Of a stretch of 64,000 nucleotides of DNA, positions 29,187 to 31,360 are shown one piece after another. Source of the DNA: Thermococcus guaymasensis DSM 11113. GTDB taxonomy: Archaea; Methanobacteriota_B; Thermococci; Thermococcales; Thermococcaceae. The notes below the pieces were generated by a model. That model made no database searches and had not been told where the DNA came from. It saw nothing but the letters and a program-made list of their open reading frames with translations. Where the stretch lies: contig NZ_CP007140.1 of assembly GCF_000816105.1 (NCBI RefSeq), positions 682,001 to 746,000 of the forward strand, given 5' to 3'. How positions within the stretch are numbered: position 1 is the stretch's first letter; the number at the start of each line of letters is the position of its first letter. Position numbers and translations under genes: made by a program.

Positions 29187-30338
29187 ATGTTTCCAGAGCG
29201 GGGGGCAAGCGAGGAGGAAGTGCTTGAAGAATTACGGCGGAAAACCGCCGAAGATTTAACGTTCGACTCCGGAAGGATTCTCGGCTCCATGTGCACCTAT
29301 CCTCATCCCTTTGCGATTAAGGTAATCACCGAGTTCATAGACAGAAACCTCGGAGACCCGGGTTTGCACGTGGGGAGCAGGAAGGTTGAGGAAGAGGCAG
29401 TTGAGATGCTCTCAAACCTCCTCGGTCTCGAAAGGGGCTACGGGCACATAGTTTCCGGGGGCACCGAGGCGAACATTTTAGCGGTAAGGGCATTCCGCAA
29501 CTTGGCCGACGTTGAGGAACCAGAGCTCATACTCCCGAGGAGCGCCCACTTCTCCTTCATCAAGGCCGGCGAGATGCTGGGAGTTAAGCTCGTCTGGGCG
29601 GAGCTGAATAAAGACTACACCGTCAACGTGAGGGACGTTGAGGATAAGATTACGGACAACACGATTGGAATCGTCGGAATAGCGGGAACGACAGGCCTCG
29701 GGGTCGTGGACAATATTCCGGCTTTAAGCGATCTGGCTCTCGATTACGGGCTTCCGCTCCACGTCGATGCCGCTTTCGGGGGCTTCGTGATTCCCTTTGC
29801 TAAGGCCCTGGGCTACGACATCCCGGACTTCGACTTTCGCTTAAAGGGCGTGAAGAGCATAACCATAGACCCCCACAAGATGGGCATGGTGCCGATTCCA
29901 GCCGGCGGCATAATCTTCCGCGAGAAGAAGTACATCGACGCGATAAGCGTCTTGGCCCCTTACCTCGCTGGTGGGAGAATATGGCAGGCCACCATAACGG
30001 GAACGAGGCCCGGGGCGAACGCTCTCGCGGTCTGGGCGATGATCAAGCACCTCGGCTTCGAGGGCTACAAGGAGGTCGTGAGGAGGGCGATGGAGCTGAG
30101 CCGGTGGTTTGCAGGGGAACTGAAGAAGATTCCAGGCGTTTACCTTATCCGCGAGCCAGTTCTGAACATTGTCTCCTTCGGCACGGAGAACCTTGAGCAG
30201 GTCGAAGAGGATCTGAAGAGAAGGGGCTGGGGCATAAGCGCCCACCGCGGTTACATCAGAATCGTTCTCATGCCCCACGTGAGGAGGGAACATTTAGAAG
30301 AGTTCTTGAGGGATTTGAGGGAGATTGTGCGGGGTTAA
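29187..30338 (+). CDS. mfnA: L-aspartate/L-tyrosine decarboxylase MfnA
   Basis: This is a 383-residue PLP-dependent decarboxylase of group II. The PLP lysine is in SITIDPHKMG, preceded by HVDAAFGGFV (the Asp that contacts the pyridine nitrogen) and HIVSGGTEANILAVRA (the phosphate-binding region). In Thermococcus, which lacks methanofuran, the enzyme decarboxylates aspartate to beta-alanine for coenzyme A synthesis; in methanogens it makes tyramine. The length is typical. GGTGAGAGC lies before the ATG. It stands alone, 20 bp after the antiporter gene. Confidence 0.9.
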   Translation: MFPERGASEEEVLEELRRKTAEDLTFDSGRILGSMCTYPHPFAIKVITEFIDRNLGDPGLHVGSRKVEEEAVEMLSNLLGLERGYGHIVSGGTEANILAVRAFRNLADVEEPELILPRSAHFSFIKAGEMLGVKLVWAELNKDYTVNVRDVEDKITDNTIGIVGIAGTTGLGVVDNIPALSDLALDYGLPLHVDAAFGGFVIPFAKALGYDIPDFDFRLKGVKSITIDPHKMGMVPIPAGGIIFREKKYIDAISVLAPYLAGGRIWQATITGTRPGANALAVWAMIKHLGFEGYKEVVRRAMELSRWFAGELKKIPGVYLIREPVLNIVSFGTENLEQVEEDLKRRGWGISAHRGYIRIVLMPHVRREHLEEFLRDLREIVRG

Positions 30339-30510
30339 TAACGCAGGATTTAATATCGCGATACTAAAAGGGTGAAATCAACCCGTAACCCCCTGAAGTC
30401 CACGTTGGCCACCCCCTCGACTTCGGAATTTCCGCTATGCGCTTCTTGACCTTTAGTTGACACTTTGAGATTAAGCTGTGATGCCCAAAGGACTCACTGA
30501 AAGAAATGAG

Positions 30511-30567
30511 ACGGTCAGTCCGTCACTCCCTCGTCACGGCTCGGACAAGGCTGAACTCATCATCCCG
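30511..30567 (-). ncRNA. C/D-box guide sRNA (second of tandem pair)
   Basis: On the minus strand a textbook C/D architecture is present: C box ATGATGA (30557-30563), 12-nt guide, D' box CCGA (30541-30544), 3 nt, C' box GTGACGA (30531-30537), 12-nt guide, D box CTGA (30515-30518). The D guide (GGGAGTGACGGA) pairs over 10 nt with CCGUCACUCC of the archaeal 16S decoding site and, by the N+5 rule, points at U1406 (E. coli numbering). The D' guide (GTTCAGCCTTGT) pairs over 10 nt with CAAGGCUGAA of 16S and points at G902. The rRNA sequences are from memory. A TATA-like element lies about 28 bp before the C box. Confidence 0.78.
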
Positions 30568-30586
30568 GGAAAAGTTGGAACGGGCG

Positions 30587-30595
30587 CTTAAAAGG
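30587..30595 (-). promoter_or_regulatory. TATA-like box of the downstream C/D sRNA
   Basis: CCTTTTAAG on the minus strand is centred 28 bp before the C box at 30563, which puts the predicted transcript start just before the sRNA. It supports an independent promoter for the second sRNA. Confidence 0.55.
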
Positions 30596-30596
30596 C

Positions 30597-30655
30597 TTGC
30601 TCAGCGATCACCTTTCCTTCCTCACCGTTCGGTTCGCCCATCACTCATCATCGCG
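30597..30655 (-). ncRNA. C/D-box guide sRNA (first of tandem pair)
   Basis: Minus strand: C box ATGATGA (30645-30651), 12-nt guide, D' box CCGA (30629-30632), 3 nt, C' box GTGAGGA (30619-30625), 14-nt guide, D box CTGA (30601-30604). The D' guide (GTGATGGGCGAA) pairs with UUCGCCCAU of archaeal 23S rRNA just before the A-loop, with further pairing through one G-U, and points at about C2530 (E. coli numbering). The D guide ends AGGTGATCG and pairs over 9 nt with CGAUCACCU at the 3' end of 16S rRNA, pointing at about C1533. Targets are from remembered rRNA sequences. The C' match and 14-nt guide are slightly less ideal than in its neighbour. Confidence 0.7.
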
Positions 30656-30674
30656 GGTTAGCATTGGTAGAGGG

Positions 30675-30685
30675 TCTTTAAGAGG
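30675..30685 (-). promoter_or_regulatory. TATA-like box of the upstream C/D sRNA
   Basis: CCTCTTAAAGA on the minus strand is centred about 28 bp before the C box at 30651, the same geometry as for the second sRNA. The element lies in the gap between the end of the TasA-like gene and the sRNA. Confidence 0.5.
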
Positions 30686-30721
30686 TTTCCTATCCTCAAC
30701 CAAAAAGAGAAGAATAAAACA

Positions 30722-31318
30722 TCACTGGCTGGCCGTTATTATTAGCCCCACATCCGCGCTGTCCGTGAGGCACTCGTTGCCCGCTGAAGGGGAGAGTTTG
30801 ATTGTTATTGTGACTTTAATTTGCTCATCCGGCTTTAGCAAGCCGTTGAAGATGCTGAGCTCGCTCATGTTGACTTCGCGGAGAGTCTTTCCGATGTAGT
30901 TGCTTAGGGCAGTGTCAGTACCGTTCACCTCAACGCGGAAGTCGGCTATCGTCAGGTATTCGCTGAGCTCGCCGACTTCTGGGGTGTTGTCCACCAGGGC
31001 CTCTGCCTTGCTCAGCGAGCCGTCCTCTAGGTCAGTCACGTTGAAGAGAAGCCCAACTGAAGAGACCGGATAATCACCGCGGTTCTTCACGTAGAATGTG
31101 AACGTCCTGCTCTCTCCGGGCGCGAGGTTGTCGAAGGAGAACAGTTTGTAGTCGTCGTAGAACCTTTTGCCGTCCTTGCTTATGCCAATGTCGAAGTCGC
31201 CTGTGGAGACCTCGTTTCCGCTGGACTTCGCAACGTCGCTGAAGTAGGAAACGCCCAGGTGTACTCCGGCCAGGAACACCAGCAGGGCCGCAACTCCAAC
31301 TATTATGTAGCGTTTCAT
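30722..31318 (-). CDS. TasA/camelysin-like secreted protein (archaeal bundling-pilin type)
   Basis: This is a 198-residue exported protein. The N-terminal helix MKRYIIVGVAALLVFLAGVHLG is followed by VSYFSD at about residues 23-28, the hallmark of SipW-type substrates (TasA, CalY). Then come TGDFDIGISKDG and FSFDNLAPGESRTFTFYVKNRGD, the TasA beta-sandwich core including the LAPGES turn. Bacterial TasA and the Pyrobaculum AbpA pilin form donor-strand-exchange filaments that bundle in biofilms; assigning this protein the same role is inference. ATG 31318 has AGGTGGT upstream and a TATA box at 31361. The gene is monocistronic. Confidence 0.75.
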   Translation of the reverse strand: MKRYIIVGVAALLVFLAGVHLGVSYFSDVAKSSGNEVSTGDFDIGISKDGKRFYDDYKLFSFDNLAPGESRTFTFYVKNRGDYPVSSVGLLFNVTDLEDGSLSKAEALVDNTPEVGELSEYLTIADFRVEVNGTDTALSNYIGKTLREVNMSELSIFNGLLKPDEQIKVTITIKLSPSAGNECLTDSADVGLIITASQ

Positions 31319-31360
31319 TGAAACCACCTAAGGTAGTTCTCATGGGCTGATACGATAATT

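What the first reader, a model, noticed from the sequence alone, without database searches (positions are those of the whole stretch)
30511..30655. Tandem C/D-box guide RNAs, each with its own TATA box, aimed at ribosomal functional centres
Two units in the same intergenic gap share the exact layout C(ATGATGA)-12 nt-D'(CCGA)-3 nt-C'-guide-D(CTGA), and each has a TATA-like element about 28 bp before its C box. From remembered archaeal rRNA, the four guides pair over 9-10 nt with the 16S decoding site (predicting U1406), the 16S G902 region, 23S near C2530 just before the A-loop, and the 16S 3' end (about C1533). The D' box of both is CCGA instead of CTGA, an unusual shared variant suggesting a duplicated pair. 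The region would be left blank by gene finders.
Basis: partly seen in the sequence, partly recalled or inferred. Interest (0 to 1): 0.72.

Follow-up and report, generated by a model that had tools for sequence, protein, structure and literature searches.

The report
Two known archaeal rRNA-methylation guide RNAs
Two small RNA genes sit side by side in a heat-loving archaeon and almost certainly guide methyl groups onto the part of the ribosome that reads the genetic code; both belong to already catalogued RNA families, so this is mainly an ordinary, well-conserved example with some informative detail.

Summary
On the minus strand, 30567..30513 matches Rfam sR60 (79.9 bits, cutoff 50) and 30655..30599 matches Rfam sR1 (56.1, cutoff 45). 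The pair is kept in 53 of 54 genus genomes examined, in the same order, each with its own conserved BRE/TATA. In five genomes an insertion (a PIN-toxin cassette where read) splits the pair and each half keeps its TATA. The fourth is wrong: the sR1 D' guide does not fit 23S C2530 (mismatch at guide position 4, -11.5 kcal/mol, rank 9); it fits 16S C1402 (10 bp, -19.3). C1402 is Cm in P. abyssi 16S in published work. So two neighbouring RNAs aim 4 nt apart at the decoding site. The shared CCGA D' box is not a sign of duplication: sR60 has CTGA in 28 of 53 genomes, and 7 of 24 C/D RNAs in this genome have CCGA. It goes with a changed C' box, as expected for the kink-turn 3b:3n pair. U1406 and G902 methylation is not reported in the P. 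abyssi 30S structure. Known kind; low to moderate interest.

The parts
30513..30567 (-). sR60, C/D box guide RNA (55 nt)
   Evidence: Rfam RF01309, 79.9 bits vs cutoff 50, E=3.5e-18
30599..30655 (-). sR1, C/D box guide RNA (57 nt)
   Evidence: Rfam RF01152, 56.1 bits vs cutoff 45, E=2.9e-11
30557..30563 (-). sR60 box C, ATGATGA
   Evidence: sequence; conserved in genus
30545..30556 (-). sR60 D' guide GTTCAGCCTTGT, aims at 16S G902 (own 852)
   Evidence: 11 bp with 1 GU, -17.5 kcal/mol, best in 16S+23S
30541..30544 (-). sR60 box D', CCGA (CTGA in 28 of 53 relatives)
30531..30537 (-). sR60 box C', GTGACGA (GTGATGA where D' is CTGA)
30519..30530 (-). sR60 D guide GGGAGTGACGGA, aims at 16S U1406 (own 1358)
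   Evidence: 10 bp, no GU, -21.2 kcal/mol, best in 16S+23S
30515..30518 (-). sR60 box D, CTGA
30645..30651 (-). sR1 box C, ATGATGA
30633..30644 (-). sR1 D' guide GTGATGGGCGAA, aims at 16S C1402 (own 1354)
   Evidence: 10 bp with 1 GU (guide positions 3-12), -19.3 kcal/mol, next best -13.5
30629..30632 (-). sR1 box D', CCGA (54 of 54 relatives)
30619..30625 (-). sR1 box C', GTGAGGA
30605..30618 (-). sR1 D guide AGGAAAGGTGATCG, aims at 16S C1533 (own 1482)
   Evidence: 9 bp, -14.1 kcal/mol, next best -9.3
30601..30604 (-). sR1 box D, CTGA
30677..30682 (-). sR1 TATA box CTTAAA
   Evidence: TATA present in 53 of 54 genomes at this distance while flanks are random
30685..30690 (-). sR1 BRE-like GGAAAC
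   Evidence: conserved peak at -40..-35 in 44 distinct upstreams
30588..30593 (-). sR60 TATA box TTTTAA, between the two RNAs
   Evidence: 53 of 53 genomes, including 5 with an insertion

Best explanation
[quoted passage not shown] Each RNA folds with L7Ae into terminal C/D and internal C'/D' kink-turn or k-loop motifs, recruits Nop5 and fibrillarin, and directs 2'-O-methylation of the 16S nucleotide paired with the fifth guide base upstream of D or D'. Predicted targets: sR1 C1402 (D') and C1533 (D); sR60 G902 (D') and U1406 (D). The C1402 and U1406 guides overlap on the same 16S strand of the decoding site, so the two RNPs cannot bind there at once and must act in turn. Shown by sequence: anatomy, family membership, conservation, promoter conservation, pairing to own rRNA, and the protein genes. 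Inferred: transcription, RNP assembly, methylation in this species.
For: Rfam matches over curated cutoffs. Pair kept in 53 of 54 genus genomes. Guide cores near-invariant (sR60 D positions 2-11 identical in 53 of 53) while the spacer and guide position 1 drift. Own-rRNA duplexes are the best in 16S+23S for all four guides. Fisher combined P against shuffled guides 0.003; single guides are only P 0.03-0.12. The target stretches are invariant in the genus 16S copies read (18 to 19 loci). Fibrillarin, Nop and L7Ae genes are present. Conserved promoter peak. Cm1376 in P. abyssi 16S, equal to E. coli m4Cm1402, modelled from cryo-EM with the modified nucleotides observed by LC-HRMS (PMC7005279).
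Against: The same P. abyssi study lists no 2'-O-methyl at the U1406, G902 or C1533 equivalents; resolution was 3.2 A, so partial or missed modification is possible. The C1533 guide gives only 9 bp, and random genomic 12-mers do as well 35% of the time. sR1 D' positions 1-2 do not pair with C1402 yet are conserved. No transcript data for this organism. No Pyrococcus copy of sR1 could be read here, so the link between sR1 and Cm1376 is by position only.
Confidence: 0.93

Rival explanations
1. The sR1 D' guide methylates 23S near C2530 instead of, or as well as, 16S C1402.
For: With one mismatch, guide positions 1-3 and 5-11 pair with TTCACCCATTA of own 23S. Guide positions 1-2 (AA) are conserved in 53 of 54 genomes although unpaired at C1402.
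Against: C.A mismatch at position 4, next to the target; -11.5 kcal/mol, rank 9, against -19.3 for C1402. All 29 genus 23S loci read have the mismatching A. C1402 is known to be methylated in a close relative.
Confidence: 0.08
2. The RNAs act mainly as rRNA folding chaperones: each brings two distant 16S strands together (902 with 1406; 1402 with 1533), and methylation at some of the sites is weak or absent.
For: Both guides of each RNA hit sites at or near the decoding centre. A chaperone role for dual guides has been proposed (PMC4644070). P. abyssi 30S shows Cm1402 but not the other three sites.
Against: Register from D/D' to target is exact for methylation at every site, and guide positions 3-7 are nearly invariant. 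No test of folding exists here.
Confidence: 0.2
3. sR1 and sR60 arose by tandem duplication of one gene, marked by the shared CCGA D' box.
For: Adjacent, same strand, same C-D' spacing, same D' box in this genome.
Against: sR60 has CTGA in 28 of 53 genomes; the guides aim at different sites; 5 other C/D RNAs scattered in this genome also have CCGA.
Confidence: 0.05

Closest known systems
Rfam RF01309 sR60 (archaeal C/D box sRNA)
   Same: Length, boxes and both guides match; 79.9 bits over the full model.
   Different: D' box CCGA and C' TGACGA here, against CUGA and UGAUGA in the family consensus.
Rfam RF01152 sR1 (archaeal C/D box sRNA)
   Same: Full-length match, boxes C and D identical.
   Different: D' is CCGA not CUGA; both guide stretches differ from the consensus at several columns that are printed as weakly conserved, so targets may differ from other members. 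In the whole-genome search mode the score was 43.4, just under the cutoff of 45.
Eukaryotic guides for 18S Cm1639/Cm1703/Cm1645 (plant AtU43) and bacterial RsmI for 16S Cm1402
   Same: Same 16S/18S nucleotide (E. coli C1402) methylated on the ribose (PMC11542601).
   Different: RsmI is a stand-alone protein; sequence kinship to the eukaryotic guides was not tested. Functional equivalence only.
Clustered C/D sRNA genes of archaea (Tripp et al. 2017 as reviewed in PMC7994747)
   Different: Here each gene keeps its own promoter; the review reports a TATA-like motif in only about 20% of C/D genes.

Membership tests
Archaeal C/D box guide sRNA | Box C RUGAUGA and box D CUGA at the ends | tested here: met
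Archaeal C/D box guide sRNA | Internal C' and D' boxes able to form the tandem G.A kink-turn core | tested here: met
   GA/AG kept; D' second base and C' fourth base vary together
Archaeal C/D box guide sRNA | Guide complementarity to rRNA with target at fifth position from D or D' | tested here: met
   chance control (modest for single guides)
Archaeal C/D box guide sRNA | L7Ae, Nop5 and fibrillarin encoded in the genome | tested here: met
Archaeal C/D box guide sRNA | Expressed small RNA bound in an RNP, methylation at the target | not testable with these tools
   needs small-RNA sequencing, pull-down, RiboMeth-seq
Rfam sR60 (RF01309) | Score above gathering cutoff | tested here: met
   79.9 vs 50
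Rfam sR1 (RF01152) | Score above gathering cutoff | tested here: met
   56.1 vs 45 in cmscan; 43.4 in the stricter genome search
Gene with its own promoter | BRE/TATA at fixed distance, conserved when context changes | tested here: met
   several unrelated upstream neighbour groups

The most novel reading that the evidence does not exclude
In Thermococcus-like C/D sRNAs the internal C'/D' motif comes in a few discrete types set by the kink-turn 3b:3n pair (C' base : D' base): U:U, C:C, G:C, and rarely G:U. By published folding rules these differ in whether they fold with ions alone, so neighbouring guides such as sR60 (C:C) and sR1 (G:C) could assemble or act at different rates on the overlapping decoding-site target.
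Probability: 0.25. Interest if true: 0.45.

Novelty: already known. Interest (0 to 1): 0.25.

Why it matters
It supplies a probable guide RNA for Cm1402, a decoding-site ribose methylation shared by bacteria, archaea and eukaryotes, and shows that an adjacent gene targets a nucleotide four bases away. It also explains the odd CCGA box as half of a coupled base-pair change rather than a mark of duplication. None of this adds a new kind of system.

Tried and rejected
Duplicated-pair reading of CCGA: rejected. A second, better C1402 guide in the same genome: searched with GGGCGGTNTGA and one mismatch; the eight candidates inspected (those with a D-box-like end) had no convincing C box in place; the listing was truncated, so not exhaustive. 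Secondary sR60/sR1 hits in the own genome (1445932, 1245593): different C/D RNAs with other targets. Pyrococcus copies: none could be named in the held collections (one search returned only MAGs labelled Thermococcus, Thermococcaceae or Thermococci). Published transcript for this pair: T. kodakarensis papers confirm dozens of C/D RNAs, but the pair was not found in the main-text tables read.

Full report
What is there. The gap 30339-30721 lies between a pyridoxal-dependent decarboxylase gene (29187-30338, +) and a gene with a weak camelysin (M73) match (30722-31327, -). On the minus strand it holds two C/D box RNAs. cmscan over the whole window gives just two matches: sR60 at 30567..30513 and sR1 at 30655..30599, both full length and over the curated cutoff. 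A plain C-D'-C' pattern finds 24 places in this 1.92 Mb genome and none with the reversed control; the pair are the only two inside the window.

Conservation. sR1 was found next to sR60 in 53 of 54 genus loci in which the sR1 guide motif was read, same order and strand (one MAG contributes two loci). The C-box to C-box distance is 88-94 nt in 48 and 795-818 nt in 5. In four of those five the inserted stretch was read: it encodes, on the other strand, a PIN-domain protein (Pfam PF01850, E=2.2e-19 for the copy tested) plus a small upstream ORF with no Pfam match, which looks like a VapBC-type toxin-antitoxin cassette. Both RNAs and both TATA boxes survive that insertion.

Promoters. Over 44 distinct sR1 upstream regions conservation is flat beyond -45, rises at -40..-35 (BRE-like GG.AA), peaks at -31..-26 (TTTTAA), and rises again from -4 to the C box. 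TATA is present in 53 of 54 sR1 and 53 of 53 sR60 upstreams, and in only 5 of 44 control windows further up. The upstream neighbour falls into several unrelated groups. T. kodakarensis start sites lie about 23 bp after the TATA box (PMC4247193), which puts the 5' ends a few bases before each C box.

Targets. The organism's own 16S and 23S were fetched and aligned to E. coli rrsB. For every guide the best place in 16S plus 23S is in 16S: sR60 D' at G902 (11 bp, one GU, -17.5 kcal/mol), sR60 D at U1406 (10 bp, -21.2), sR1 D' at C1402 (10 bp, one GU, -19.3), sR1 D at C1533 (9 bp, -14.1); second places are -14.6, -13.9, -13.5 and -9.3. The chance test is sobering: single guides reach P 0.03-0.12 against shuffled guides, and 0.003 combined. 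The stronger arguments are conservation of the guide cores, the overlap of two independent guides on one short stretch, and the known Cm at C1402 in P. abyssi (PMC7005279 Table 4). A 2024 review also aligns a P. abyssi Cm1369 with E. coli Cm1402 (PMC11542601), in another numbering.

The CCGA box. sR1 has CCGA in 54 of 54 loci. sR60 has CTGA in 28 and CCGA in 25; CTGA goes with C' TGATGA in 28 of 28, CCGA with TGACGA in 24 of 25. Across the 24 C/D RNAs of this genome, 16 have CTGA (C' TGATGA 14, TGAGGA 2) and 7 have CCGA (TGAGGA 4, TGACGA 3, TGATGA 0); Fisher P=1.5e-4. In box C/D kink-turns box D's second base (3n) faces the second U of box C (3b); archaeal C/D motifs favour U:U (PMC5689011). 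So CCGA is one half of a coupled change to C:C or G:C. McPhee et al. [quoted passage not shown] applying that to these C'/D' k-loops is inference. The sR60 co-change may be few events on the tree; this was not counted.

Caveats. The P. abyssi 30S study lists no ribose methyl at the U1406, G902 or C1533 equivalents, so those three stay predictions. Guide positions 1-2 of sR1 D' (AA) are conserved but unpaired at C1402. No expression data exist for this genome here.

Verdict. A pair of known-family C/D guide RNAs, correctly spotted; one target corrected, the duplication argument not upheld.

Noticed in passing
L039, L043, L051, L057, L182 (between sR1 and sR60): A roughly 700-bp insertion sits between the two RNA genes, leaving both promoters intact; in the four loci read it encodes a PIN-domain protein plus a small ORF (VapBC-like). 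L182 has an insertion of similar size that was not read for genes.
   Followed up: partly
own genome, 24 C/D RNAs (G000:C1): D' second base and C' fourth base are coupled (U:U, G:C, C:C, G:U), the kink-turn 3b:3n pair; P=1.5e-4.
   Followed up: partly
L027-L032 (other families of the same class): An sR60-like C/D RNA whose D guide GAGATGGGCGGT fits 16S C1402 with one mismatch (a 23S site also fits); possibly an independently built C1402 guide (judged on this organism's rRNA).
   Followed up: partly
30633-30634 (sR1 D' guide positions 1-2): AA next to the D' box is conserved in 53 of 54 loci although it does not pair with the C1402 target.
   Followed up: no
G000:C1:1445932-1445986 (-) (L094): Another C/D RNA with strong 16S matches: 11 bp at own 1020, and a score of 11.5 at own 1155 if the second CTGA of CTGACTGA is box D.
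   Followed up: no
G016:C51 and G016:C226: One MAG bin carries both the split and the unsplit version of the pair, suggesting a mixed bin.
   Followed up: no
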